From the NCBI RefSeq assembly GCF_017875765.1, contig NZ_JAGGNA010000001.1:62001-126000 (forward strand): DNA of 64,000 nucleotides, read 5' to 3'. Positions 1 through 23,460 of the stretch are shown here, piece by piece. This DNA is from Flavobacterium sp. CG_23.5 (GTDB taxonomy: Bacteria; Bacteroidota; Bacteroidia; Flavobacteriales; Flavobacteriaceae). Made by a program: the position numbers and the translations under genes. Numbering within the stretch: position 1 is the stretch's first letter; each line of letters begins with the position of its first letter. The notes beneath the pieces are model-generated. The model was not told where the DNA came from. It made no database searches and saw only the letters and a program-made list of their open reading frames with translations.

Positions 1-424
1 TACTGACTTTTAACCAATCGTGTAATGTTTCGCCTTTCATCAGTAAATCATAACCTCTGAATATCTCAGCGTTTACAACTTTACTTTTTGTTATATTGTC
101 TTCCCAATTGATGTCTAAATCGTGGTAACGTAACTTAATCATCGAGGACAAAATGCCATTTAAATTATGTACCGTAAATAGTGTTGGGTGAATACTATTA
201 GACGACATTTGAATATTGAGGAGTTCCTTGTTTCTTTTCTCGGTATCTGACAACCCAGCAATTAAACAAATACGCATCAGTTTTGCATTACCTTTTGGAG
301 TAACGTTTTTATGATTGTCTGTGTACTGTTTTAAATTGATGTGTTTTTCCAATCGCTCGCGCAAATCATTCATTTTTGAATTTAATGCCTCTGCTTGTCT
401 TAAACCTGTTTCTATTGCTGCCAT
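1..424 (-). CDS. Unrecognised protein, last visible gene of the defence operon (3' end outside window)
   Basis: The minus strand is open from an ATG at 422-424 to the window edge, giving 141 residues beginning MAAIETGLRQAEALNSKMND. The start lies only 6 bp beyond the stop of the DndD-like ATPase gene, so it is very probably co-transcribed with it. The visible part looks helical and charged, with no signal peptide or membrane segment, and I see no motif I can assign. It does not resemble DndB, DndC or DndE as I know them. Its position immediately after a DndD-like gene suggests a partner of that ATPase, but this is inference from context only. Confidence 0.7.
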   Translation of the reverse strand, partial: MAAIETGLRQAEALNSKMNDLRERLEKHINLKQYTDNHKNVTPKGNAKLMRICLIAGLSDTEKRNKELLNIQMSSNSIHPTLFTVHNLNGILSSMIKLRYHDLDINWEDNITKSKVVNAEIFRGYDLLMKGETLHDWLKVS

Positions 425-430
425 AACCGC

Positions 431-2440
431 TTAATTATATTTTTCAAAATACCCTTCGACAACATGTGTCAATTGGTTTTCTTTGTCTCTAACGAGTGTA
501 TATTTCTTTGAAATGAAGTTCTCAATTTTAGCCAAATCAATCGATTTTCTAATTTCACTATCGGTGCTTAATAAAATGGTTTGATGTGAAAGTTTTGGAA
601 AATAATTTTCTAATAGTGAAGCCCTGCTGTTTTCATCTAGATAACCGAAAACGGTGTCTATCATTACTGGTGGATTGTAATCACCAAAATAATGCAATGA
701 TTTTAGTAATACTTGAATGATTATTTGTTTTGACGCAGCATTTAATTCGTCTAGATATATTTCGTTTCCTGCTTTGTGGTATATTTTAAAGGATAGATTA
801 CTTAAATCCTCTGAAAGAACTACGCGATCTATTTGGTCTTTATACACGACTAAGGTTGTATTCAAATCATTTTTCATTTCCTCTTCAATACGTGCTTTTT
901 TGTTTATCAACAAAGCATTTGAAATTTTAGAAAATAAAGGGCCTAATTTTTTAAGTGCTTCCAGTTTAGGATTGGGTTCTTCCTCGTCAGACAAATCAAA
1001 CCTTTTAATTTTAGCATCTAGTTTGTCGCTTTCAATTTTATAATTATGAAGAGCGTCTTTGTAGTCTTTAATTTTTAGTTCATTGGCTTCAAAGCTTTGT
1101 ATTATATCTTCACTGCCACCAATATCGTTTTTTCTTAAATCTAGCAGCTGAATTCTTAAATTAGGCAAGGTGGCCAATTCCTTTTCTAGACTGCTTTTTT
1201 GTTGTTCTAGGGTAGTGTACTGGTTAATACTTGACCAACCCAATAACTGTTCAAAATAAGTGACATCTTTTTTATCAATGAAGTCGTATTCTGTTTTCTT
1301 ATTGTTCTGGCTTGATTTTGTTAAGATGAATTTTGCAAGTGCAGTTTTTTGTTCTTTAGATAATTCCCCTAAGATTAAATGATGTTCTTTTAGGAATTCC
1401 AATACTCTGTCCGTCAATTTATTGATTTGTTCAGGGTCTATAAAATCACTGCTGATTTGTTGTCCTTTTTCTGAAAGGATTAGTTCTATTTCGTATTGAA
1501 CAATGGTAACCAACTTTGGAATAAAAACCTGAATCTCAATATCATTTAGAAATTTTTCTGATTGCTCGATGAAGAGTGATTCTTTATTTAAAATATCTTC
1601 AATCTTTCTATCAACGATTAGGATTTGTTCTTTGATATCTGCTTGTAGATTTTTACCTTCTTTGGCACTTTCATAAAATTCCTTTTGAGAAATAGAGTAA
1701 TTTAATGCTCTTTCATTTAGTGTTGCTGTAGATTCGATTAATTCCTGGTACTTCTTTTGCTCCTCTATCAGGTTTTTGTACTGTGTTCTTTCTTCCCCAA
1801 TTTCTATGCTTTGCGCAATGTATTCTTGCGTAAGGGTATGAGTGGCATTTCCTAACTGGATGTATTTATTGAAACCCATTACATTTTCAATATTTTCTTT
1901 AATAACACGGTTTAGGTACTCGTCTTTCAACAAATTACCTGCTTCCATTGCATCAAAAAGGAAATATTTACTTAATTCTTGTGGCAGATTGGCTTTGATT
2001 ATTTTATTTACTTCGGCTTCTTTTTTTACTCTTTCGGCGTGAGGCGTTGCGGTGCCATAATTAAAAATGTCCCCGTTAAGATTAAGCATTACGGCTTCTA
2101 CTGGATTATTTTGAGCATTGATAGTATATAACCTTTTAATTATATATTTGTAATCAGTGTGTAATACTTTACCCGTAAAATGAATTTCTAATTCAATCTT
2201 GTTGCTACTATTACTGGAGGTTTTAGCTCTTTCACCAGCATTTTGTAATTTATTGAAGTGTTGTTCGTCTTTGACTTTTAGCCCATACAAAGCACTGTAA
2301 ATAGCTTGAAACAAAGTAGTTTTTCCGCCACCGTTTTCTCCACCAATTAAGATTATAGGCTGCTCTTCATTAACAGTCAAGTCTAAATCTAGTTCCTGAT
2401 AGGTTTTAAAGTTTTTGGCAATTATTTTGGTTATGAGCAT
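431..2440 (-). CDS. DndD-like SMC/ABC-type ATPase
   Basis: This is a 669-residue ATPase of the SMC/Rad50/DndD type. Residues 33-41 (GGENGGGKT) form the Walker A loop. The centre, roughly 190-520, is a long charged helical region likely to be coiled coil. A degenerate ABC signature (LNAASKQ) is followed near the C-terminus by the Walker B-like stretch VMIDTVFGYLD and by QTILLSTDSEI, an arrangement typical of DndD, the ATPase of DNA phosphorothioation systems. DndD acts together with DndC and DndE, and neither is visible here. The gene is embedded in a Type III R-M operon instead, 5 bp after a small gene. I infer a DNA-sensing or DNA-remodelling role in that system; sulfur modification is not supported. 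Confidence 0.85.
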   Translation of the reverse strand: MLITKIIAKNFKTYQELDLDLTVNEEQPIILIGGENGGGKTTLFQAIYSALYGLKVKDEQHFNKLQNAGERAKTSSNSSNKIELEIHFTGKVLHTDYKYIIKRLYTINAQNNPVEAVMLNLNGDIFNYGTATPHAERVKKEAEVNKIIKANLPQELSKYFLFDAMEAGNLLKDEYLNRVIKENIENVMGFNKYIQLGNATHTLTQEYIAQSIEIGEERTQYKNLIEEQKKYQELIESTATLNERALNYSISQKEFYESAKEGKNLQADIKEQILIVDRKIEDILNKESLFIEQSEKFLNDIEIQVFIPKLVTIVQYEIELILSEKGQQISSDFIDPEQINKLTDRVLEFLKEHHLILGELSKEQKTALAKFILTKSSQNNKKTEYDFIDKKDVTYFEQLLGWSSINQYTTLEQQKSSLEKELATLPNLRIQLLDLRKNDIGGSEDIIQSFEANELKIKDYKDALHNYKIESDKLDAKIKRFDLSDEEEPNPKLEALKKLGPLFSKISNALLINKKARIEEEMKNDLNTTLVVYKDQIDRVVLSEDLSNLSFKIYHKAGNEIYLDELNAASKQIIIQVLLKSLHYFGDYNPPVMIDTVFGYLDENSRASLLENYFPKLSHQTILLSTDSEIRKSIDLAKIENFISKKYTLVRDKENQLTHVVEGYFEKYN

Positions 2441-2445
2441 AGTAC

Positions 2446-2661
2446 TTATATTTTGTTTAAAGCCTTTTCGATAATTTTTTCAATCTTTTTGCTATCAATA
2501 TCTTCATTATTGATCTTTAGATTGTGGAACTCTTTTAGTATGTTTTCTTGCATCCATTCAAAATCCAAACCTTGTTCTTCACAAAGATTTTTGATAATTT
2601 CCATATCGTCTTTACGAATACCAAAATGAATAAAAGTGGTGTCTAAGCCTTTATTTATCAT
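2446..2661 (-). CDS. Small protein (71 aa) of the R-M operon
   Basis: This is a 71-residue, charged, probably all-helical protein beginning MINKGLDTTFIHFGIRKDD and ending in a Lys/Glu-rich helix. It lies 5 bp from both neighbours (RhuM upstream, DndD-like ATPase downstream), so expression as part of the operon is likely. Small proteins do occur in DNA-modification defence operons next to DndD-like ATPases, but I see no motif that fixes a function. It could be an adaptor for the ATPase. The tight spacing and the coding-like composition make a chance ORF unlikely. Confidence 0.7.
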   Translation of the reverse strand: MINKGLDTTFIHFGIRKDDMEIIKNLCEEQGLDFEWMQENILKEFHNLKINNEDIDSKKIEKIIEKALNKI

Positions 2662-2666
2662 AACTT

Positions 2667-3653
2667 TTACTTGTTATTGAGTTTTTTTATTTCCCGATCT
2701 AAATCAGAAATGTATTTTTTATCCTGTTCTACTCTGAACTGTTCGTATTCTGAATGTGCTTTCTCTACTGCTTGTTCGTGCGAAATATTTCCTGCATTTG
2801 GTAGTACTTCTAAGTCGTTACTTTCTAAAAACTTATTGGTTCGTTCTAACCAATCTTTCATATTCATTAATTGGTTTCTACGTGCTTGAAACTCTGCCAA
2901 ATCTAAATAGGCACTGACCAATAAATTCAAATCGCCAATTTCATTTTCCTGCAAATAGTTCTTTGCAATGGTCACATCGCTTTTTAAGACCTTGCCTTCT
3001 GGTGCTTTTTTCCAAGAGGTTAAACCCATAAAATCTTTGGTTTTATCGGCACGAGTGTAGACAATTTCGGCAGCTGTTTTCCCGGTTATAGCAAAATGCA
3101 GTTTGTTTTGGACCATTTTGTAAAACAGCTTTGTTTCTTCCGCTTCTTTGTTGTAATCAGCGCTGCATTGTTCAAAAATATCACCTAGTTTTTGGTATAA
3201 CCGTCGTTCGCTTGAGCGAATTTCTCTAATACGCTCCAGTAATTCATCAAAATAATCTTTACCAAATGGTTTTCCGTTTTTGAGCATTTCGTCATTCAAG
3301 ACAAAACCTTTGATAATGTATTCTTTAAGCGTTTGTGTAGCCCAAATACGGAATTGTGTGGCTTGTTTTGAATTTACTCTGTAGCCAACCGCTATTATAG
3401 CATCTAGATTGTAAAAAGAAGTAGTATAGTTTTTACCGTCTGATGCAGTTGTTTCCATTTTGGAAACAACTGCATTTTCGATGAGTTCTCCCGACTCAAA
3501 AATATTTTTCAAATGCTTACTTATGGCAGGCACTGCTACACCAAAAAGCTGCGCTATTAGCTTTTGGGTAAGCCAAAAATTATCCTCAAAATAAGTTACA
3601 TCTATTACTACATTGCTATCTTGACTTTGATAAAAAATAATTTTGTTTACCAT
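2667..3653 (-). CDS. RhuM-family protein
   Basis: This 328-residue protein matches the RhuM family, named from a Salmonella pathogenicity island. The N-terminal half contains the recognisable stretches NFWLTQKLIAQLFGV (HTH-like), ISKHLKNIF and the segment around YNLDAIIAVGYRVNSKQATQFRIWAT, which are hallmark RhuM sequence. The C-terminal half carries TGKTAAEIVYTRADKTKDFMGL, related to the Fic/Doc-associated region of the same family. The biochemical role of RhuM is unknown. RhuM genes are often found in mobile and restriction-modification loci, and here it sits 9 bp after res and 5 bp before the small gene, inside one operon. Confidence 0.88.
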   Translation of the reverse strand: MVNKIIFYQSQDSNVVIDVTYFEDNFWLTQKLIAQLFGVAVPAISKHLKNIFESGELIENAVVSKMETTASDGKNYTTSFYNLDAIIAVGYRVNSKQATQFRIWATQTLKEYIIKGFVLNDEMLKNGKPFGKDYFDELLERIREIRSSERRLYQKLGDIFEQCSADYNKEAEETKLFYKMVQNKLHFAITGKTAAEIVYTRADKTKDFMGLTSWKKAPEGKVLKSDVTIAKNYLQENEIGDLNLLVSAYLDLAEFQARRNQLMNMKDWLERTNKFLESNDLEVLPNAGNISHEQAVEKAHSEYEQFRVEQDKKYISDLDREIKKLNNK

Positions 3654-3662
3654 GGTGTATGC

Positions 3663-5957
3663 TTAAAGTGCAATCGGGTTAAACATATCCATACCCTTAG
3701 TGTCTTTTGTATTACTGATCGTATTATTCCAATACCACCAAGTAGATGTCGTACCGTTTACTTTTTCAATTAAAATCCCTCCAATAGTTTTTAATCCTTT
3801 GCTATTTCTAACTGCAATAAACTCTATTAAAGCATTGTGTTTTAAATGTGCATTTGCTGGGTCACTTCCGGCTGTTTTAGTGTCGAATAAATAAGTAATA
3901 TTAGTTTTACTCAGTATGACAAAATCAACATAAAAAAGACTTTGTTTGCCCAAATAATCGATGTACGGAACTGCAAAATGCTCTTTGGCTTTTTCCCCAT
4001 TTTTATACCACCATTCTAAATGTGCTGCATTATCTTCTAAAAACTCTGCAAACTTAACTTCGGGTTTTGATGCCCTATTGTATTCATAAAAAGGTTCTAA
4101 AGCGTGGATTTTTACTTCCTCTTTTTCCTCGTATAATTCATTGTAAATTCGTTCAATTGGAACTTCCCATTGGTAATTTTGAACATCTTTTGTAGCATTA
4201 TTTGCTTTCTGCTCTTGCATTTCCTGATAGCGCTCTTTAGCCTTTTCTATTAACTCAATAAAAACAGGCTGGTTTTGGTCGTACAACATTATTTTAATAG
4301 CATCGTATTCAATAATTCCAAAATAGTCTTCAAAGAAATATTTCATAGCTCCTTCTAAAACTGGCGTACTATCTACAGCTGCATAAGGTGCTATTAAACC
4401 TCTACAAAAATCTTTGAATAATCTTGCCATTTCACTTGGCGTTTTTGCAAAACGAGCCGTTTCGGTTACCAATTTCGTTTGCTCTTCTCCAGTCAATAAT
4501 ACATTCTCTGGAATAACAATTTCAATAGTATTTATATCTGTATTTATGAAGCGTTTTTTAAGAAGTTCTTTATTGGTTTCAAAAAAATGGTCTGAACCCA
4601 TTTCTCTTTTTAATTCCCAATTCAGTTCGGCAATTTCATATAACGCTTTTCTGAATTTTGCACCTAAACGATTACGAACTATTCGGGTATTGATATAAGT
4701 AGAATTCAATTGAACAGGAATATAGTTTTCTATTCTTCGTGCTTTATTCGTTGTAATATAACTCATATCGTCTTTAACAATTTCGATTTGATTTTTACTT
4801 AAATTGGTAAAAACATATCCTTGATTTAGCAACGGATTTGGATAATGTTTTTGTTCGGGCATACGTAAAATTCTACCTACGGTTTGAATGGTGAACGTGG
4901 TGCTTTTTAATTCTCTAAAAATCAATAAAACTCCTGCTCGAGGACAATCCCAACCTAATGCAATGGCTTGTTTGAAGAGTAAAACCTCGACCATATTATT
5001 TGGCTTTTCAATATCTTCTACATTGTCTTTTCTACCTGATAACCAAACTGCTAATTTATTATTACTGACTGTAATGTTATATTTTACTTCCAAATTCTGT
5101 AAAACCACATCAATATACTTTTGATCATCTACTGTGTTATTATCACTGGTATCGTTGGGTAGTTGTATTAACAATAACGGATTGATTTTTACACCTAAAC
5201 TTTCATACGCTTGGCATAATTCCTCTCTTTTTGTTAGAGCTTGATGTAATAAAATTTCTTCTAAAGAACGACCTTCTTGCTTTACTAGATCTAAAGCAGG
5301 ATTTAAAATAATCCCTTCTTTGATCATTTCTTCAGCAATAACATCCTGACGTTCTACCAATGTTCTGTAATCGCTATTGGTTGTTGGTGTTGCCGAAACT
5401 CTAATTTCTACTTTCGGATAAATTTTTTGCAATACTTCATTAGCTCGTTTTGCTGTTTTAGTATTAGCAAACATATGTTCTTCATCAATAATAACAATGA
5501 TTTCAGTATCGTTTAGTTTGGCTTTGTTAATGAAACTGTATAGATTTTTATTAGTTTCATTTTCTCTAATCATGGTGTTTTTCTCTTTGTTGATGCTTTC
5601 CCAATTGACAAACAACACCTCGTTTGGTTGTAATTCATTATCTGAAACATCTTCAAAGAAAATAGGCTTTATAGAACGCATTTCGGCAAAATACCCTTTT
5701 AGAGCATTGTAACTCTGAATGTATAATTTGTTTGGTGCTATCCAAATAAACGCTGCTTTTCGTTTTTCTAATTCGTAACGTTCTGGTAACTCCTCGCAAA
5801 ACTTGTTTAACAACGAAGCCATCATCACAGTTTTACCTGAACCTGTAGGTGCTTTGAAAATTAAATTCTGTCTGCTTCCTGATTTTTTTAACAGTTTACA
5901 TAAATTAGTGGAAAGATCGTTAACCGCTTCGTCTTGGTATTTTTTTAAATGTATCAT
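3663..5957 (-). CDS. res: Type III restriction endonuclease subunit (Res)
   Basis: This 764-residue SF2 helicase-nuclease is the restriction subunit of a Type III system. Motif I is APTGSGKT (residues 36-43), motif II is DEEH (158-161), and QTVGRILRMPEQ is motif VI. The C-terminal endonuclease is a PD-(D/E)XK fold with Asp678 in YVDFVIL and the catalytic pair in FDTKTAG (Asp692 and Lys694), so cleavage looks intact. Res needs Mod for site recognition and uses ATP to find a second, oppositely oriented site before cutting unmodified DNA. It lies 7 bp after mod. The start MIHLKKYQDEAV is close to the usual N-terminus of this family. Confidence 0.92.
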   Translation of the reverse strand: MIHLKKYQDEAVNDLSTNLCKLLKKSGSRQNLIFKAPTGSGKTVMMASLLNKFCEELPERYELEKRKAAFIWIAPNKLYIQSYNALKGYFAEMRSIKPIFFEDVSDNELQPNEVLFVNWESINKEKNTMIRENETNKNLYSFINKAKLNDTEIIVIIDEEHMFANTKTAKRANEVLQKIYPKVEIRVSATPTTNSDYRTLVERQDVIAEEMIKEGIILNPALDLVKQEGRSLEEILLHQALTKREELCQAYESLGVKINPLLLIQLPNDTSDNNTVDDQKYIDVVLQNLEVKYNITVSNNKLAVWLSGRKDNVEDIEKPNNMVEVLLFKQAIALGWDCPRAGVLLIFRELKSTTFTIQTVGRILRMPEQKHYPNPLLNQGYVFTNLSKNQIEIVKDDMSYITTNKARRIENYIPVQLNSTYINTRIVRNRLGAKFRKALYEIAELNWELKREMGSDHFFETNKELLKKRFINTDINTIEIVIPENVLLTGEEQTKLVTETARFAKTPSEMARLFKDFCRGLIAPYAAVDSTPVLEGAMKYFFEDYFGIIEYDAIKIMLYDQNQPVFIELIEKAKERYQEMQEQKANNATKDVQNYQWEVPIERIYNELYEEKEEVKIHALEPFYEYNRASKPEVKFAEFLEDNAAHLEWWYKNGEKAKEHFAVPYIDYLGKQSLFYVDFVILSKTNITYLFDTKTAGSDPANAHLKHNALIEFIAVRNSKGLKTIGGILIEKVNGTTSTWWYWNNTISNTKDTKGMDMFNPIAL

Positions 5958-5964
5958 GCTAAAT

Positions 5965-7797
5965 TTATACGGTTTCTTGATTAAATAAATATCCTTCTTC
6001 GTCTATTGCATCTTCTTCTAAATCTGGAACAGTAGTCCGTTTCTTGTTTGGCAACACATTTTGATAGGCTTTATATATTGCATCAGGTAAAGCACAGAGT
6101 GTGATAAGTGCTAAAACTTCCTCAAAATCCTCCGTATAGGGATATTGGCCATTACTGAATACATATACTTTAACAGGATTGTCGTTTTTCTTTTCGTCAA
6201 AGAGCTTTTTAATGATTTCAAAGCTATCTTCGATCTTCATATCCTCATAAATAATGATAAACTGTGATTTTTGTCCAGAGAAGGCGCGGTACCATTTCAC
6301 TTTACTATGCAATTCATGGTAACAATCTTCTTTAATACATAATAGTTCTGTGGCCAGTTTTGCAAGTTCTTTTTTGTTCTTCATGGATTGATCCCGACTA
6401 ACATATTCACTTTTAAAATACCTCAAATTATTGTTTTTTAAACCTTCAACTGCAGCACCTTTAGCATTGTTATAGCCTTCAATCACTCTTTTATTACGTT
6501 CATAGGTCACTTCTTCACAAATATTATTTTCATTGTTGGTTACTAAAATACATTGACGATTTCCACCGTCTTCTGCATTGAGTGCCATTGTAGAATGTAA
6601 TGATGTTCCTGTACCAGCAAAAAAATCTAGAATTATTGGACTTTCATTTTTTGAATAGAAAGTTAAAGTATTAATCAAATATGAAATTAAAGTAGAAGGT
6701 TTTGGATAGGTCATTACACCTTCTGCATTAAATATATTAATTAACTCTTGATATGCATCTTCATTTGTGCCAACACCAATTTCAGGATTTATTAAAGAAG
6801 ATGGTCTTTTAATTTTATCACTCTGATTGTGCCTTAAAGTATTAAAACCAAATTTGGAAGAAAGGGATATCGCACTACCCAGTTTAATTTCTTCATTTAA
6901 TTTTTTTTGAACCCAAACGAAAGAGGCCTCAACAGTAATGCTTTCCAAAATTATACCTTCCTCGATATTGAAATCATTTTTAATTTTTATTGATGAAGTA
7001 CCGTTTCCATATTTACCAGCTAAATATTTACCGTTTTTTAAAGTAGTTTGTAAAAAATTTTCTGGAAAAACTAAATTTTTAAGTGAATTAGTTCTTTTAA
7101 CTAATGGTTGCCATTTATCAGCATATGCTTCTTCACCATATAATTCAATGTTTTTTATTGATTTTGAATAACACAAAACATACTCTGTCATACTTCTCAA
7201 AGTCTTAGAAAGATGACTTCCCTTCTTCTTTTTTACCCATATAAAAGTGCCTACAAAATTATTTTCAATAAAGATTTCGTCACATAATAATTTCAATTGA
7301 GATTGTTCATTATCATCAATACTTATATAAACAATACCATTTTCATGTAATAATTTTTTAGCAATTTTTAACCTCTTATACATAAAGGAGAGCCATTTAC
7401 TATGGCGAAAGCTGTCTTCTTTATCTACAAAGGTATCGTTGTATTTAAAATCTTTATTACCAGTATTATAAGGTGGATCAATATAAATCACATCTATTTT
7501 GCCTTCGTGTGTAAACGTCAGAGCAGTTAATGCATGCAGGTTGTCGCCTTCAATTAAAATATGGTTTGGATGTTCCTCACCATTAATGATGGCTTTTTCT
7601 TTTACTTCTTTCAATACAGGAAGATTTTCTCGTAATTGTTCCTCCACATCTTCGGGTTTGTCTTCCCAAACTAAGCCGTATTTCTTTTTGGTGTTTACCA
7701 AATTAATTAAATAGGCACGCTCGTCTTGAGTTACGCCCTCTAGTTTTTTTATTTTTGAGATAAGTTCTTGTTTGTTCATATTTGAATTAGTTTGCAA
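5965..7797 (-). CDS. mod: Type III DNA methyltransferase (Mod)
   Basis: This is a 610-residue beta-class adenine-N6 DNA methyltransferase. The catalytic motif IV DPPY is at 107-110 (VIYIDPPYNTGN) and the SAM-binding motif FFAGTGT follows at 392-398. That order defines the beta class used by Type III Mod proteins. The region between, about 200-380, should hold the target-recognition domain. Mod both protects host DNA and supplies sequence specificity to Res. The ATG follows the stop of the TPR gene directly (7798/7797), and a second in-frame Met at residue 7 is an alternative start. The recognition sequence cannot be read from the protein. Confidence 0.93.
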   Translation of the reverse strand: MQTNSNMNKQELISKIKKLEGVTQDERAYLINLVNTKKKYGLVWEDKPEDVEEQLRENLPVLKEVKEKAIINGEEHPNHILIEGDNLHALTALTFTHEGKIDVIYIDPPYNTGNKDFKYNDTFVDKEDSFRHSKWLSFMYKRLKIAKKLLHENGIVYISIDDNEQSQLKLLCDEIFIENNFVGTFIWVKKKKGSHLSKTLRSMTEYVLCYSKSIKNIELYGEEAYADKWQPLVKRTNSLKNLVFPENFLQTTLKNGKYLAGKYGNGTSSIKIKNDFNIEEGIILESITVEASFVWVQKKLNEEIKLGSAISLSSKFGFNTLRHNQSDKIKRPSSLINPEIGVGTNEDAYQELINIFNAEGVMTYPKPSTLISYLINTLTFYSKNESPIILDFFAGTGTSLHSTMALNAEDGGNRQCILVTNNENNICEEVTYERNKRVIEGYNNAKGAAVEGLKNNNLRYFKSEYVSRDQSMKNKKELAKLATELLCIKEDCYHELHSKVKWYRAFSGQKSQFIIIYEDMKIEDSFEIIKKLFDEKKNDNPVKVYVFSNGQYPYTEDFEEVLALITLCALPDAIYKAYQNVLPNKKRTTVPDLEEDAIDEEGYLFNQETV

Positions 7798-9762
7798 CTA
7801 TTTTATTTTCTTTGCCATTTCATATTCTTTTTTAAAATCCAAACCAAGATGTTGCACTTGTTCTGGCATGGCTAAAGTCCAAGAAACATAATAGTAGGCA
7901 AGGATTTGATTACCTGAAAAGCGTTTGCCGGTTATGCTGGAAATGATGTAGTCTTTTTTATTGGGATCAATACCCATTGTGCCTAACATGGCAATTTCAA
8001 GCGCTGTTTGTTTTATATCTTCTGCTGCTTTGTCTTTGAAGTACTTTAGGGCATCAACCATAAACATGACAATAGCCATGTTGGTTCCAATTTCTTCTTG
8101 ATGTTTTTGGAATTTTTCCATTTCCCTTTTTTGCAAAGGATCTTCCACTTCCTCTAAACCAAAAGGATCTTGTTGCAGCTTTGTTAGGAAATCATCGATG
8201 TTATTTTTAGTCTCGAATTTAGTTTCGCTTTCTAACTCGAAGAAAGAGTCTAAATTGAGTTCTTTTCCCCAATGTTTTACTAGTTCGAACTCTTGTCCAG
8301 GTTTGCGATCGTCTTTGATTTCTGAAAATTCGTTGAAAAAAGATTGGGCTTGTTTTAATTCGGCTGTTGAAGCTTTGAATTCCGGAATTAAATCAATCCC
8401 AAATAATGCTTTGAATTGCATGGCGTTTACCAAGCTATATGTTTTAGTTTTTGAAACTATATTTTGCGGGGCTAAATCTAAAACTCTTTCATCCGTTACG
8501 GACTTAATTGCTTCTTGAAGCAAGTTAAAAAGGGATAGGAATTGGTACGATCTTAATTCTGCATATTCTTTGTACAGGAAGTCCTCAATGAACACATCAA
8601 TTGGTGTGTTGTAGGTTTGAAGATTTAATCCATTAAAGATTCCATCCGTAAATTTAGTAACCATTGTTTCTTCTACTCCCATGCTTTTCAGTTTTTGAAT
8701 AGCTGGTTGTATGGTTTGGAGGAAATCCTGTTTGTTTTTTTGAGTAGATAAGAATACTTGGTTCAGATTTTCTTTACGTGCCTGGATTACAAAATCTAAA
8801 TGGACCAATTCGTGCATTACTAGATGTTCTACTGCAGGATAGGTCGATTTGTATTTAACGATATGTTTGTCGCGATTGTGTCTTTCCGCAAATTCTATTT
8901 TGGCAGCCGTTTGGATTTCGTCGTCTTTGAAAATGTCAATTTCAATTCCGCCCTGAGCTTCTAATTGGCTTCTGTAGGTTTTAAATAGTTTTTTACCATC
9001 GGAATCGCTTGCAATTTTATTGGCCAAGGAAAAGGCTTGTTTTAATGCGTTTTGGTAAAGTGCCTCTTCGTTAGTTGACTGTTTTATAGCTTGAATCGTA
9101 CTATAAAAAGCAGATTGTAAATCATTTTCCTTTTCTGCAATCAGTGAAAGAATAAAAGAGGTATTTGGATAATTGTCTTTTAACTTGATTGCTTCGTAAG
9201 CATATTTTTTAGCGTCTTCTAGTTTGTTTTCCTGTAAGAGGAGGTAAGCAATGTTAGCTAAAGTGATGTGATCAGCTTTATTAGCCAATATCGCTTGGTC
9301 GTAATACTTCAAAGCTGTAGTAACATCGTTTTTGTGTCTGGCAAAAATGTTCCCCATCATCATTAGAGCCCAACCGTTAGTTGAATTCCAACGTAGTGCA
9401 TCGATTAAAGCATTTATGGCTTCGTCCTGGTCACCTTGCTCGGAAAGTATTTGTCCCAGAATTCTATGAAACTCTGAATTAGTAGGGTTTTTATCGATTA
9501 ATTTTTCGAGGATTGCTCTTGCTTCGTCAAATTTTCCTTTGTCGCACAAGGCAACGGTTTTGTTGTAATCAGCGTCTTGGGTTATAATAGTTTCGGTATC
9601 GACATCAATTATAACTAAATCTTCCTGCAAAGTAACCGTTGGTATAAAAGGACCATAAGAGTACTGTTTTTTAATTGCATCAGTTATTACATCCTTGTTA
9701 TCAGGAGTTAAATCTGGAAATAGTGTAAAAAAGAAATCGTTTATTTTATGAATAATTTGCAT
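7798..9762 (-). CDS. TPR protein with zincin-like HExxH motif, first gene of the R-M operon
   Basis: This 654-residue protein has two parts. Residues about 65-230 form several tetratricopeptide repeats (for example DEARAILEKLIDKNPTNSEF, then two to four more helical pairs). The second part contains HELVH at 317-321, preceded by a hydrophobic helix (AVEHLVMHELVHLDFVI), the zinc-binding signature of gluzincin-type metallopeptidases. A Glu in YKEYAELRSYQ further on could be the third ligand. There is no signal peptide, so it is likely cytoplasmic. It leads the operon and abuts mod without any gap. A protease or sensor role is inference, since the fold could also be inactive. I do not know a named family for the whole protein. 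Confidence 0.85.
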   Translation of the reverse strand: MQIIHKINDFFFTLFPDLTPDNKDVITDAIKKQYSYGPFIPTVTLQEDLVIIDVDTETIITQDADYNKTVALCDKGKFDEARAILEKLIDKNPTNSEFHRILGQILSEQGDQDEAINALIDALRWNSTNGWALMMMGNIFARHKNDVTTALKYYDQAILANKADHITLANIAYLLLQENKLEDAKKYAYEAIKLKDNYPNTSFILSLIAEKENDLQSAFYSTIQAIKQSTNEEALYQNALKQAFSLANKIASDSDGKKLFKTYRSQLEAQGGIEIDIFKDDEIQTAAKIEFAERHNRDKHIVKYKSTYPAVEHLVMHELVHLDFVIQARKENLNQVFLSTQKNKQDFLQTIQPAIQKLKSMGVEETMVTKFTDGIFNGLNLQTYNTPIDVFIEDFLYKEYAELRSYQFLSLFNLLQEAIKSVTDERVLDLAPQNIVSKTKTYSLVNAMQFKALFGIDLIPEFKASTAELKQAQSFFNEFSEIKDDRKPGQEFELVKHWGKELNLDSFFELESETKFETKNNIDDFLTKLQQDPFGLEEVEDPLQKREMEKFQKHQEEIGTNMAIVMFMVDALKYFKDKAAEDIKQTALEIAMLGTMGIDPNKKDYIISSITGKRFSGNQILAYYYVSWTLAMPEQVQHLGLDFKKEYEMAKKIK

Positions 9763-19491: not shown

Positions 19492-21417
19492 ATGGCAATG
19501 ATTACATTAACTCAAGTTACAATAGATAAGTATAAGAGTATTCAAAAAAAACAAGTTGTCGAGATTGATCCGGCAATCACAACTATTGTCGGTATGAATG
19601 AAGCAGGAAAGACTTCTTTTCTAACCGCAATTGCAAAAACTAATTACTTTACTGTAGATTCGGATTTTGAATTTGACATGACACAAGATTATCCAAGAAA
19701 TGAGTTAATTGATTTTCAACATGGAGATGAAGATTCTGATATCATTACTTGTAAATATGAGATTTCTGCAGAACTTTTAAAAGAGATTGAAGATGAATTT
19801 GGGGTAGGAGTCTTTACAGTTAAAGAATTTAGCTACACAGTTCACTATAAGGCTGAGGCAAATTCATTTTCTGGAGTTACTGCTAACCTCAAAAAATTTC
19901 TTGAGTTAGAGGTAGAAAAATATGAATTGTCAGCTGAAACAAAAGAAATTATTAAAAAGCTTTCTGCTTTAGATGAAGTAGAAAAGATTGTTGGTATTGA
20001 AGCAGACGAGGATCTTCCTGTTTTTAAAAAGGAAGTTAAAAAGATTATTGATGGAGCATATCCTAAATGGGGTAATGATCTTGCTGGGTATATTGGTAAA
20101 AAATGGATTAAAGCTAAGATGCCAAAATTTTGGTATTTTGATGATTATTATCCGCTAAGAGGTAAAATCAACATTAATACTTTAATTAATCAGCCACCGA
20201 CAAATGAAAAAGATAAAACTTCGAAAGCATTATTTGAATTGGCAAGAATAAAACCTGAAGATATTCTAAATGCAACTGAACAAGAATATGAAAAATACAT
20301 AGCTCTTTTAGAAGCTTCCTCCAACAAAATTACTGCAGAAATTTTTAAATATTGGTCTACAAATAAAAATCTTGATATAGAGTTCAAAATTCAAAATACA
20401 ACTAATATACAAGGTCAGCCCGAAAAAATTCTAGATATACGGGTTAAAAATCAACGACACAAAATTACATTGCCTTTAGACAGAAGAAGTAAAGGATTTA
20501 ATTGGTTCTTTTCTTTTATTATTTGGTTTAGCAAAATTCAAGCTGATAAAAATTCAGATTATATTTTGTTACTCGACGAACCAGGTTTGAATTTACATGC
20601 GTCCGCGCAAGCTGATTTACTAGGTTTCTTTCATGATTTGTCAAAAAAATATCAAATAATTTATACAACTCATTCTCCATTTATGGTCGAAACTGAGCAT
20701 TTAGATCGAGTAAGAACTTGTTTCGAAACTGAGGATGGAACTATAATATCGGATTCTATTCAAGAAAAAGATCCAAATACTTTATTTCCACTTCAAGCAG
20801 CTTTAGGTTATGATATTGCACAAAATTTATTTGTTTCAAAAAACAATCTTCTTGTTGAAGGTCCAGCAGATTTAATTTATTTGACGGTTATTTCATCTTT
20901 ACTTGAAGGAGAAAAACGAACATTTCTAAATGAAAATATTACTATTGTTCCTGTTGGTGGTTTAGACAAAGTCACGACTTTTATATCATTATTAAGGGGT
21001 TCAAAACTTAATGTTGGATGTTTACTTGATACATTCACTGATCAAAAAGGAAAGCAAAAAGTTGAGGATTTAGTTATGCATAAAATTATAAAAGATAAAA
21101 ATATTAGGTTTTTTAATGAATTTACCGACAATGGTAAGTCTGTTGCTGATATTGAAGACCTTTTTGATAAAGAAGAATATCTAAATCTATTCAATTTGGC
21201 ATTTGACAAAGAGCATCCAGAAATCAAATTAGCTGATTTGGACACAAGTCTTGATACAATTCTTAAACAAATAAATAAAGTGATTAAAAAGTCGAGATTT
21301 AATCATTATCGTCCCGCAAATAAACTGAATCAGTTAGGAATTGATGAAAATTATTTAAAACCAGCCACTTTAGACAGATTTGAAAAAATGTTTACCGAAA
21401 TTAATAAGTTATTTTAA
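19492..21417 (+). CDS. OLD-family ATP-dependent nuclease (ABC ATPase plus Toprim)
   Basis: This 641-residue protein has the two-domain plan of OLD nucleases. The ATPase has Walker A GMNEAGKT (34-41), a signature-like RRSKGFNWFFSF (331-342), Walker B LLLDEPGLNLHA (359-370) and a His switch in YTTHSP (His394). The Toprim domain follows: NNLLVEGPADLIYL with Glu456, then CLLDTFTD with Asp513 and VADIEDLF near 551-558. OLD proteins include P2 Old and GajA of Gabija, which restrict phages by DNA cleavage. No UvrD-like GajB follows; a terminator ends the unit instead. The partner seems to be the nuclease-like gene upstream. Confidence 0.88.
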   Translation: MAMITLTQVTIDKYKSIQKKQVVEIDPAITTIVGMNEAGKTSFLTAIAKTNYFTVDSDFEFDMTQDYPRNELIDFQHGDEDSDIITCKYEISAELLKEIEDEFGVGVFTVKEFSYTVHYKAEANSFSGVTANLKKFLELEVEKYELSAETKEIIKKLSALDEVEKIVGIEADEDLPVFKKEVKKIIDGAYPKWGNDLAGYIGKKWIKAKMPKFWYFDDYYPLRGKININTLINQPPTNEKDKTSKALFELARIKPEDILNATEQEYEKYIALLEASSNKITAEIFKYWSTNKNLDIEFKIQNTTNIQGQPEKILDIRVKNQRHKITLPLDRRSKGFNWFFSFIIWFSKIQADKNSDYILLLDEPGLNLHASAQADLLGFFHDLSKKYQIIYTTHSPFMVETEHLDRVRTCFETEDGTIISDSIQEKDPNTLFPLQAALGYDIAQNLFVSKNNLLVEGPADLIYLTVISSLLEGEKRTFLNENITIVPVGGLDKVTTFISLLRGSKLNVGCLLDTFTDQKGKQKVEDLVMHKIIKDKNIRFFNEFTDNGKSVADIEDLFDKEEYLNLFNLAFDKEHPEIKLADLDTSLDTILKQINKVIKKSRFNHYRPANKLNQLGIDENYLKPATLDRFEKMFTEINKLF

Positions 21418-21843: not shown

Positions 21844-23091
21844 CTAATTGGCCTTTTTGCTAATTTTATCATTGTTGCTGTTTAACATTTTCTTTCTCAA
21901 AATCATCATGTCCTCGCTGACTTTTTTGTCTAGCACCTTTGCATAATGTTGTGTGGTTCTTAAGTTTTTGTGTCCAAGCATTTTACTTACACTTTCGATA
22001 GGAACTCCGTTTGTGAGAGTTACTGTGGTTGCAAAAGTATGTCTAGCAATGTGAAAGGTTAGCTCTTTTTCGATTTCGCAGACGCCAGCAATTTCCTTTA
22101 AATACGCATTCATTTTTTGGTTACTCAAAATGGGAAGCAGTTTGTTTTGATTGCAGCATTCCGGATGATCCTCATATTTATCAATAATCATTTGGGTAAT
22201 TGGAAGAATTGGAATCTTTGAAGCCGTTTCTGTTTTCTGGCGGTGGGTGAATATCCACTTTTCTCCATCAATACCGAGGCTTATGTGGGACTTTGTTAGG
22301 TTTTTGACATCAATGTAGGCTAAACCTGTAAAGCAGCTAAAAAGGAAGATATCGCGTACTAATGAGAGTCTATCTGTTTTGAAATCTTTGTTGATGATAT
22401 TCTCAATCTCTTCCTCGGATAAATACACCCGTTCCACTTCTCTGATTTTGGCTTTGTAGTTGCTGAAAGGGTTTCTGTCAATCCAATTGTTGGCCAAACA
22501 AATCTTTATGATTTTGCTAAAATTCTTGATGTACTTCACCGCGGTGTTGTTGGCGCAATTTCGAACGCTTCGCAAGTAGAACTCATAGTCGGTAATAAAA
22601 GCATGATTTATTTTATCAATCTCGATATCGGATATTTTGTATTTCCATTCAAGAAAATCGATCGTATGTTTTAACGAGGTCTTGTAGCGCTCCAATGTAC
22701 CTGGTGCATATTCTTTACCTACCAATTCTTTAATTTTATTGTTATGGTCTTGGAAGATGGGGACCAACATTCGTTTGCGTTCTTCAAAACCAAGGATTTT
22801 GTTTTTGATAGTTTCTGCAGTAACCGGAATGTTTTTGTGTATTAATTCCATTTGCCCATCAATAATTTTGATTTTAAACATATCAAGATGGCTATTTATT
22901 GAACGGGCTTCTTCTGAATTGCCTTTCATTTTGCCTGCTTCTGTAGACCATTTGGAAATGTCGACAAATCGGTTTGTGCTTAATTCAATTCTTTTGCCAT
23001 TAATGGTGATTCTTATGTAGATCGGAACTGAACCGTTTACGCTGGCTTTTGCTCTCTTTGCATAAAAGAGAATTGATACTTTTGTTTTCAT
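21844..23091 (-). CDS. int: Tyrosine recombinase (integrase) of a Bacteroidota integrative element
   Basis: This 415-residue integrase has an N-terminal arm-binding domain (1-95), a SAM-like core-binding domain (about 110-210) and a catalytic domain. The C-terminal catalytic residues are present: HIARH with His347 and Arg350, LGHKN with His374, and QHYAK with the nucleophile Tyr383. The position of the first catalytic Arg reads TGLAYID (Ala258) instead of TGLR. That substitution is known from IntDOT-type enzymes, so the gene is not necessarily inactive. The gene begins 282 bp from the 3' end of tRNA-Ser, a typical attachment target, and is flanked by iterated repeats on both sides. Confidence 0.95.
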   Translation of the reverse strand: MKTKVSILFYAKRAKASVNGSVPIYIRITINGKRIELSTNRFVDISKWSTEAGKMKGNSEEARSINSHLDMFKIKIIDGQMELIHKNIPVTAETIKNKILGFEERKRMLVPIFQDHNNKIKELVGKEYAPGTLERYKTSLKHTIDFLEWKYKISDIEIDKINHAFITDYEFYLRSVRNCANNTAVKYIKNFSKIIKICLANNWIDRNPFSNYKAKIREVERVYLSEEEIENIINKDFKTDRLSLVRDIFLFSCFTGLAYIDVKNLTKSHISLGIDGEKWIFTHRQKTETASKIPILPITQMIIDKYEDHPECCNQNKLLPILSNQKMNAYLKEIAGVCEIEKELTFHIARHTFATTVTLTNGVPIESVSKMLGHKNLRTTQHYAKVLDKKVSEDMMILRKKMLNSNNDKISKKAN

Positions 23092-23267: not shown

Positions 23268-23318
23268 ATCCCTTTCAGTACACGCATTAATGAATATTTT
23301 GGAGGGAGTATAAAAGAA

Positions 23319-23352
23319 AAAACCCTTTAAATCATACGATTTAAAGGGTTTT
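23319..23352 (-). terminator. Intrinsic terminator of tRNA-Ser
   Basis: AAAACCCTTTAAATC (23319-23333) pairs perfectly with GATTTAAAGGGTTTT (23338-23352) around ATAC. It starts 21 bp beyond the tRNA 3' end and is followed by a T-run on the minus strand. Confidence 0.88.
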
Positions 23353-23372
23353 AATTCAATTTGTATTTATAC

Positions 23373-23460
23373 TGGCGGAGAAAGAGGGATTCGAACCCCC
23401 GGACCTGTAACAGTCAACAGTTTTCAAGACTGCCGCATTCGACCGCTCTGCCATTTCTCC
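23373..23460 (-). tRNA. tRNA-Ser (anticodon TGA)
   Basis: On the minus strand the 88-nt gene starts GGAGAAATGGCAGAGCGGTC and ends with an encoded CCA. The acceptor stem GGAGAAA pairs with TTTCTCC, the T-arm contains GGTTCGAATCC, and the anticodon loop is CTTGAAA in a GCAGT/ACTGT stem, giving anticodon TGA. The long variable arm (TTGACTGTTACAGGTCC region) fits a class II tRNA such as serine. The neighbouring integrase makes its 3' end the likely attachment site of the island. Confidence 0.96.

What the first reader, a model, noticed from the sequence alone, without database searches (positions are those of the whole stretch)
1..9762. Expanded Type III R-M operon with TPR/HExxH, RhuM, a small protein and a DndD-like ATPase
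Seen: seven minus-strand genes with gaps of 0 to 9 bp run from a TPR/HExxH protein through Mod and Res to RhuM, a 71-residue protein, a DndD-like SMC ATPase and an unrecognised gene cut by the window. Known: a classical Type III system is only Mod and Res; DndD normally works with DndC/DndE in phosphorothioation. Inference: this is a composite defence system in which the ATPase and the HExxH protein add a sensing or effector step to Type III restriction. I know no described system with this exact set.
Basis: partly seen in the sequence, partly recalled or inferred. Interest (0 to 1): 0.8.

Follow-up and report, generated by a model that had tools for sequence, protein, structure and literature searches.

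The report
Type III restriction with DndD partner
A bacterial anti-virus gene cluster couples a Type III restriction-modification pair to three further proteins related to the DNA sulfur-modification (Dnd) machinery; the five-gene set recurs in the same order in many Bacteroidota, while two of the seven genes first noticed are exchangeable extras.

Summary
In detail: seven tightly packed minus-strand genes. The gene cut by the window edge is a 526-aa HerA/FtsK ATPase; the 71-aa protein belongs to Pfam Sp-DndD (PF20306).

Homologous loci show that the conserved unit is five genes, Mod-Res-Sp-DndD-HerA. Of 39 DndD-baited loci with at least 5 kb upstream, 37 have Res and 36 have Mod and Res. Sp is in 53 of 55 assessable loci, HerA in 52 of 54. 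RhuM (4 of 58 loci) is one of several exchangeable inserts, with Abi_2, Fic and DUF1016. The TPR/HExxH gene is an accessory that also heads BREX and other defence operons.

The set is two modules: Sp, DndD and HerA diverge in step (r 0.87-0.92), while Mod and Res are swapped against them. This DndD family has a degenerate ABC signature, LN[TA]AS[KT]Q, in 52 of 52 rows. HerA's N-terminus is predicted to fold like DndE; sequence comparison did not confirm it.

Best reading: a Type III R-M variant in which a DndD/DndE-HerA complex, tied in through Sp, scans or moves DNA for Mod-Res. How it acts is inferred. Searches of the held library found no description; a 2020 survey was not held. New variant of a known kind; interest 0.62.

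The parts
1..424 (-). DndE-like/HerA (FtsK-type) ATPase, 526 aa; continues outside the window to G000:C1:60844. Core gene 5.
   Evidence: DUF87 1.7e-11; DndH 1.7e-21; PDB 7es4 DptH 3e-12 with the profile of 44 rows; AF2 model with strand-helix-helix twice at the N-terminus
431..2440 (-). DndD-like ABC ATPase with degenerate signature LNAASKQ, no cysteines. Core gene 4.
   Evidence: PADLOC DndD 1.4e-54; TIGR03185 9.7e-50, below cut-off; LN[TA]AS[KT]Q in 52 of 52 full-length rows; no Cys
2446..2661 (-). Sp, 71-aa small protein (Pfam Sp-DndD). Core gene 3.
   Evidence: PF20306 4.2e-7; alignment of 37 rows
2667..3653 (-). RhuM-family protein; accessory insert in the Res|Sp slot
   Evidence: PF13310 2.4e-109; in 4 of 58 baited loci
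3663..5957 (-). Type III restriction subunit Res (SF2 helicase plus C-terminal D-x13-DxK motif). Core gene 2.
   Evidence: ResIII 3.1e-18; REase_III 6.9e-17; D678, D692, K694 invariant in 33 of 33 rows
5965..7797 (-). Type III methyltransferase Mod (TTG start; in-frame ATG at 7779). Core gene 1.
   Evidence: N6_N4_Mtase 1.5e-29; MTase_III 6.3e-90; PDB 6k0w 3e-50, 4zcf EcoP15I Mod 2e-34
7798..9762 (-). TPR protein with HExxH metallopeptidase-like motif (HELVH, residues 317-321); accessory at the operon head
   Evidence: HExxH in 10 of 10 aligned rows, window included; heads other defence operons
21844..23091 (-). tyrosine integrase of the element that carries the system
   Evidence: PF00589 2.2e-14, Arm-DNA-bind_5
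23312..23391 (.). 80-bp att-like repeat overlapping the 3' end of tRNA-Ser (23373-23460, -); identical copy at G000:C1:47957-48036

Best explanation
This is a five-gene defence system, Mod-Res-Sp-DndD-(DndE)HerA, carried here on a 37-kb integrative element at tRNA-Ser. Shown by sequence: the five genes, their order and recurrence, intact catalytic motifs in Mod and Res, swapping of Mod-Res against a co-diverging Sp/DndD/HerA trio, and the modified DndD signature. Inferred: Mod methylates host sites and, with Res, tells self from non-self as in ordinary Type III systems. DndD (an ABC ATPase) and the DndE-like part of HerA form a DNA-clamping and scanning complex, and HerA is its DNA translocase. 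Sp, which weakly resembles the C-terminal tail of DndC, links that complex to the modification/restriction enzymes. The trio would act after Mod-Res engages unmodified DNA, holding or pumping the invader so that Res cleaves it efficiently, without depending on which sequence Mod reads. Variable genes in the Res|Sp and Mod|Res slots (RhuM, Abi_2, Fic, DUF1016) and at the operon head (TPR/HExxH) act as back-up effectors or regulators.
For: 58 DndD-baited loci annotated: Res in 37 and Mod+Res in 36 of 39 with 5 kb upstream; Sp in 53 of 55 (51 by script; L053 and L073 read from the frames printed); HerA in 52 of 54. Tight spacing (median 5 b for Sp>DndD over 50 pairs, 3 b for DndD>HerA over 53). 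Distance correlations over 28 rows: Sp/DndD/HerA 0.87-0.92, Mod and Res against DndD 0.38 and 0.49, each still above all 999 permutations; L016 and L066 share 98% DndD but 47% Res. Res of the system forms one clade apart from 4 stand-alone Res (100/98, long-branch warning). The trio without Res in two genomes of one genus, three unlinked genes each. DndE topology in the model (against PMC10853773 section 13). Five genes with no insert beside a relaxase on record MT835906.
Against: No function was tested; no methylome or phage data. L055 keeps Sp-DndD-HerA without Mod-Res, L065 and L067 are lone DndDs, and the unlinked trio lacks Res, so the trio can exist alone. Bait bias: loci were found through DndD. 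The DndE domain is not significant by sequence (hhalign probability 0.7%, E 0.083; the full-length profile comparison aligned only residues 154-501), and no fold search could be run. The Sp-DndC resemblance is weak (E 0.009-0.06; neither DndC was clearly separated from shuffles with the system-only profile, one of two with a broader profile). The degenerate ABC signature leaves open whether DndD hydrolyses ATP.
Confidence: 0.55

Rival explanations
1. The trio assists modification rather than restriction: as DndD and DndE serve DndC in phosphorothioation, here they load or activate Mod, so that Mod alone methylates poorly.
For: In Dnd systems DndD-DndE is proposed as the core to which modification enzymes are recruited (PMC10853773, abstract and passages). 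Sp weakly resembles the DndC tail. Two Type III m4C systems needed Mod and Res together to methylate well (PMC8259958 abstract and passages).
Against: Mod keeps its catalytic motifs, and Type III Mods are generally reported to act alone (PMC8259958 abstract). Mod is exchanged freely against the trio, which argues against a tight Mod-specific fit.
Confidence: 0.25
2. Two separate defence systems side by side: a Type III R-M pair and an autonomous Sp-DndD-HerA system that travel together for shared regulation or mobility.
For: Partly different histories of the two halves; the trio without Res in G283 and G275 and without Mod-Res in L055; accessory genes often inserted between Res and Sp.
Against: 36 of 39 loci with enough flank have both halves in the same order, and Res of the system forms its own clade against the 4 stand-alone Res sampled.
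Confidence: 0.15
3. One reading: RhuM and TPR/HExxH are obligate parts of one sensing and killing cascade.
For: Uninterrupted spacing of 0 to 9 bases in the window.
Against: RhuM in 4 of 58 loci; a clear TPR/HExxH relative in 1 of 58, cut by the locus edge. The TPR gene heads other defence operons, and RhuM is reported in other R-M loci (PMC3710099 passages).
Confidence: 0.03

Closest known systems
Type III R-M (EcoP15I, EcoP1I)
   Same: Mod and Res in order, Type III Mod homology (PDB 4zcf), SF2 helicase plus C-terminal D...DxK motif in Res
   Different: Three further genes are linked 3' of res in nearly all loci; Res is 764 aa, and the PDB sequence searches listed no EcoP15I Res
Type III m4C systems with an extra ATPase (Eco86II, BspHIV; PMC8259958, abstract and passages)
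   Same: Type III pair with a conserved extra ATPase of unknown role
   Different: That gene is an SF2 helicase-like protein 5' of mod; here a DndD-like ABC ATPase, a small protein and HerA lie 3' of res
CxC ABC-ATPase/DndE systems (PbeABCD; PMC10853773 section 16)
   Same: ABC ATPase of the DndD/CxC group, small protein, DndE, helicase-nuclease, sometimes methylases
   Different: Those use an HKD nuclease-helicase and cytosine methylases. Here the nuclease and methylase are Type III Res and Mod, the ABC ATPase has no CxC or CxxC (0 of 51), and the DndE-like domain is joined to HerA
Dnd modification loci with DndE-HerA fusion (clade-3 HerA, PMC10853773 section 22; here L015)
   Same: DndD near a DndE-HerA fusion of the same layout (Walker A at 185 against 186-193)
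   Different: A PAPS reductase (DndC-type) is present in L015 and absent here; ABC signature LSxGE there, LN[TA]AS[KT]Q here

Membership tests
Type III R-M | Mod: beta-class amino-methyltransferase of Type III type | tested here: met
   DPPYN[TR]G in 37 of 37 rows
Type III R-M | Res: SF2 helicase with C-terminal PD-(D/E)xK nuclease | tested here: met
   D678, D692, K694 invariant in 33 of 33 rows. By motif only: EcoP15I Res not listed in PDB searches, fold not tested
Type III R-M | ATP-dependent cleavage at two inverted unmethylated sites | not testable with these tools
   needs biochemistry
Type III R-M | only two subunits | tested here: not met
   Sp, DndD, HerA linked in nearly all loci; whether they join the enzyme complex is unknown
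Dnd phosphorothioation | DndC PAPS-reductase-like sulfur transferase in the locus | tested here: not met
   no PAPS_reduct in the tables for the ten genes scanned
Dnd phosphorothioation | DndD ABC ATPase | tested here: inconclusive
   full-length match but below the equivalog cut-off; signature motif changed
[quoted passage not shown]
   predicted topology fits; sequence comparison not significant; fold search could not run
CxC/PbeABCD | CxC zinc hook in the ABC ATPase | tested here: not met
   0 of 51 with CxC or CxxC, and no Cys at all in the window protein
CxC/PbeABCD | HKD nuclease fused to SF2 helicase | tested here: not met
   no HKD/PLD family in the Res tables; Res carries a D...DxK motif
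DndFGH | DndH with C-terminal HerA plus DndF and DndG | tested here: not met
   only the HerA part matches DndH (residues 165-507); no DndF or DndG in the tables shown (three of ten capped at 25 rows)

The most novel reading that the evidence does not exclude
Sp-DndD-DndE/HerA is a general DNA-scanning and translocating chassis that accepts different modification enzymes through a small adaptor. In Dnd systems the adaptor would be the fused tail of DndC, in CxC systems a free small protein beside methylases, and here a free small protein beside Type III Mod-Res. A DndD with a broken ABC signature would act as an ATP-gated clamp that hands Mod-Res target DNA to a HerA pump: a Type III system whose DNA transport is done by added machinery.
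Probability: 0.35. Interest if true: 0.78.

Novelty: new variant of a known kind. Interest (0 to 1): 0.62.

Why it matters
Type III enzymes are described as Mod2Res1 complexes that communicate between distant sites on their own. A conserved set that adds an ABC ATPase, a DndE-like domain and a HerA translocase in many Bacteroidota would show a second way to couple recognition to action. It would also show that the DndDE core is not tied to DNA sulfur chemistry, a point raised in PMC10853773 for cytosine methylases. The freely swapped Mod-Res half makes the role of the trio directly testable with one trio and several Mod-Res pairs.

Tried and rejected
Seven-gene system: rejected on homologous loci. 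Canonical Dnd or CxC membership: rejected (no DndC, no CxC, changed signature). Plasmid carriage: no HerA match in 72,556 plasmid records at 1e-20. Phage carriage: one phage-labelled, unannotated record (MT835906) of 50,697; it has a relaxase and integrase-like ORFs by eye, so it reads as a mobilisable element. Viral contigs: 286 pattern stretches, none a DndD relative. PDB search with the Sp profile: best IsdG, E 0.012, taken as chance. MADS literature search: the 15 listed of 3,114 were unrelated; the mad8 similarity was not pursued because only the HerA part matches. Literature on the set: listings (1 paper; 2; 0; 20 of 29 listed; 12 of 18 listed; 2; 1); opened: PMC10853773 (abstract, sections 13, 16, 22, passages), PMC12839542, PMC12707154, PMC12602166 and PMC3710099 (passages), PMC8259958 (abstract, passages). 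None of what I saw describes Mod-Res with DndD/HerA. PF20306's description shows that its curators had seen Sp in Dnd systems; the 2020 survey that probably described it (recalled: Krishnan et al., NAR) is not held. Not achieved: structural search of the HerA model, a Res model, a Mod tree, whole-phylum prevalence of the full set.
Full report
WHAT IS THERE. The window is G000:C1:62001-126000 of a 3.67-Mb genome in one contig. Two genomes of the same genus share contig lengths and DndD loci with Flavobacterium granuli DSM 19729 and F. cyanobacteriorum TH021, so the genus is Flavobacterium. The seven minus-strand genes and the gaps of 0 to 9 bases are as reported. Extending leftward completes the seventh gene: a 526-aa HerA/FtsK ATPase ending at G000:C1:60844. 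Beyond a 564-base gap follow a DRT2-type reverse transcriptase and a pair matching PADLOC PDC-M16A and M16B.

GENE IDENTITIES. Mod matches Type III methyltransferases (PADLOC 6e-90; PDB 6k0w, and EcoP15I Mod 4zcf). Res matches ResIII and Type III REase models; D678, D692 and K694 of its C-terminal motif are invariant in 33 of 33 rows, though PDB searches listed no EcoP15I Res. The 71-aa protein is Sp-DndD, PF20306. The ATPase matches DndD over its full length, below the curated equivalog cut-off. HerA matches DndH and mad8 models and PDB 7es4 (DptH).

CONSERVED UNIT. One scan of GTDB species contigs with a three-sequence DndD alignment gave 58 loci: 50 of 58 with Bacteroidota-type record titles, the rest Ignavibacteria or Kapaibacterium (4), single MAGs labelled Opitutales and Alphaproteobacteria (binning not checked), and two unplaced bacteria. 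I annotated all 58. With at least 5 kb upstream (39 loci), 37 have Res and 36 have Mod and Res; in L018 Mod would lie beyond the locus edge, and L055 and L065 have neither. With at least 2 kb upstream (52), 48 have Res; missing in L048, L055, L065, L067. With at least 300 bases upstream (55), 53 have Sp (51 by script, two read in the printed frames), missing in L065 and L067. With at least 1 kb downstream (54), 52 have HerA, missing in the same two. L047 and L068 lie on one contig, and L052 and L066 repeat G447 and G411, so the counts are not all independent. Spacing is tight in most. In 299 genomes of the genus, the window's included, PF20306 rings in 13; 7 of these have the DndD of this family, at 47% identity or more.

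EXCHANGEABLE GENES. RhuM sits between Res and Sp in 4 of 58 loci and in G495. The window's RhuM is only 46-48% identical to those 4, which are 75-98% identical among themselves, so independent insertion is likely. The same slots hold Abi_2, Fic, DUF1016, AlbA-type and multi-gene inserts. RhuM, Fic/Doc and Abi2 proteins have been described in R-M operons, and RhuM proposed as a toxin in a multilevel defence (PMC3710099, passages). The TPR/HExxH gene has one clear relative among the 58 loci (L041, cut by the locus edge). A search of 247 phylum genomes found the family in 16, the window's included. Of six neighbourhoods fetched, five place it first in a defence-type run: BREX (L120); a DrmD-like helicase with a IIG enzyme (L122); a MazG-like gene with a Schlafen-type helicase (L123); a similar small gene, by eye, and an AbiO-like protein (L124); and a partial Mod-like pair (L121). 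The sixth (L125) does not. HExxH is kept in 10 of 10 aligned rows.

TWO MODULES. For 28 rows with all five genes full-length (27 loci plus the window), pairwise distances of Sp, DndD and HerA correlate at 0.87-0.92, Mod with Res at 0.63, and Mod or Res with the trio at 0.38-0.56; all pairs exceed 999 permutations, so the halves are partly co-inherited. L016 and L066 are 97-99% identical in the trio but 47% in Res and 52% in Mod. In L028/L030, L042/L044 and L021/window the middle of Mod varies while the ends stay alike, as expected for target-recognition changes. Stand-alone relatives of Res were found in 4 of 395 genomes besides the window's; three have enough flank to show that no Sp or DndD follows. 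In a tree of 44 Res proteins the 40 from this system form one clade (100/98) apart from the 4 stand-alone ones, with a long-branch warning.

THE TRIO ALONE. In two genomes of one genus (G283 and G275; neighbouring genes match L065, Candidatus Kapaibacterium, and L067, Ignavibacteria) HerA, DndD and Sp each exist as single genes on different contigs, with no Res found. The same Res query rings in other genomes, but an empty answer remains weak. This supports the trio as a unit and shows it can exist without the R-M half.

DndD AND DndE. All 52 full-length DndD rows of this family (window and 51 loci; split or cut copies left out) read LN[TA]AS[KT]Q, where the six compared Dnd and CxC-type proteins read LSxGE. 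None of 51 has CxC or CxxC. The HerA model has mean pLDDT 80 and pTM 0.67; in its first 140 residues 10 of 14 ten-residue blocks are at 80 or more (range 61-93). Its elements are E9-11, H14-29, H46-59, a short H66-69, E73-77, H81-87, H89-99, H110-129, H133-139. Taking H81-99 as one kinked helix, this is the strand-helix-helix pair with linker, long last helix and C-terminal extension that PMC10853773 section 13 gives for DndE. By sequence the match is in register but not significant, and the full-length comparison aligned only the HerA part. The same paper (section 22) mentions HerA fused to DndE beside DndD in some Dnd systems; L015, L132 and L134 are such cases.

Sp AND THE DndC TAIL. DndC-type models match Sp proteins only near their C-terminus (PDLC02662 404-457/481, E 0.0093; NF005316 405-458/505, E 0.02; TIGR03183 400-446/447 for a CxC-type Sp, E 0.063). 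In the PADLOC scan 2 of 37 Sp proteins match DndC and 2 match PbeB. PF20306 itself rings below its cut-off in one 448-aa frame that is a PAPS reductase. A system-only Sp profile does not separate DndC from shuffles; a broader one ranks one of two DndCs above all 500. I treat the link as a lead.

MOBILITY. An 80-bp perfect repeat joins the tRNA-Ser 3' end (window 23312-23391) to G000:C1:47957-48036, delimiting about 37 kb with an integrase next to the tRNA; a second integrase lies just left of the left repeat. Record MT835906 carries a relaxase and the five genes with no insert.

MECHANISM AND NOVELTY. Shown: composition, order, conservation, exchange pattern, intact Mod and Res motifs, altered DndD signature. 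Inferred: the roles of the trio. Closest precedents are Type III systems with an extra SF2 ATPase 5' of mod (PMC8259958, abstract and passages) and CxC/Pbe systems with methylases (PMC10853773, section 16). Nothing I saw in the held library describes Mod-Res with DndD, Sp and HerA (listings; passages of two reviews), but the 2020 survey that may mention it was not available. I file it as a new variant of a known kind.

Noticed in passing
window 7798-9762 and L120, L122, L123, L124: TPR/HExxH family recurs as first gene of unrelated defence operons (BREX; DrmD-like helicase with IIG enzyme; MazG-like gene with Schlafen-type helicase; an AbiO-like locus): a possible general defence-operon metallopeptidase.
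   Followed up: partly
window 23312-23391 and G000:C1:47957-48036: 80-bp perfect repeat at tRNA-Ser bounding a 37-kb integrative element; a second integrase (L003:6514-7770) outside the left repeat suggests tandem elements.
   Followed up: partly
L002:8723-10279, 5723-8704, 3180-5735: DRT2 reverse transcriptase and a PDC-M16A/M16B pair (NERD and UvrD-type domains; TPR and TOTE-type domains) beside the system: a defence island.
   Followed up: no
window 19492-21417: OLD-like ATPase with TOPRIM domain near the integrase end of the same element.
   Followed up: no
L011, L012, L065, L067, L126, L127: Sp, DndD and HerA as three unlinked genes in two genomes of one Kapaibacterium-type genus, without Res found: role unknown.
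   Followed up: partly
L079, L080, L081, L083, L087: A second Flavobacterium system: a protein of about 490 aa or more (sigma-70 region 4 match in the one scanned, L081), a 60-aa Sp and a distant DndD (21-23% identity).
   Followed up: no
L020, L060, L061, L071: DndD reads as two ORFs in these loci (degenerate or sequencing error); described only.
   Followed up: no
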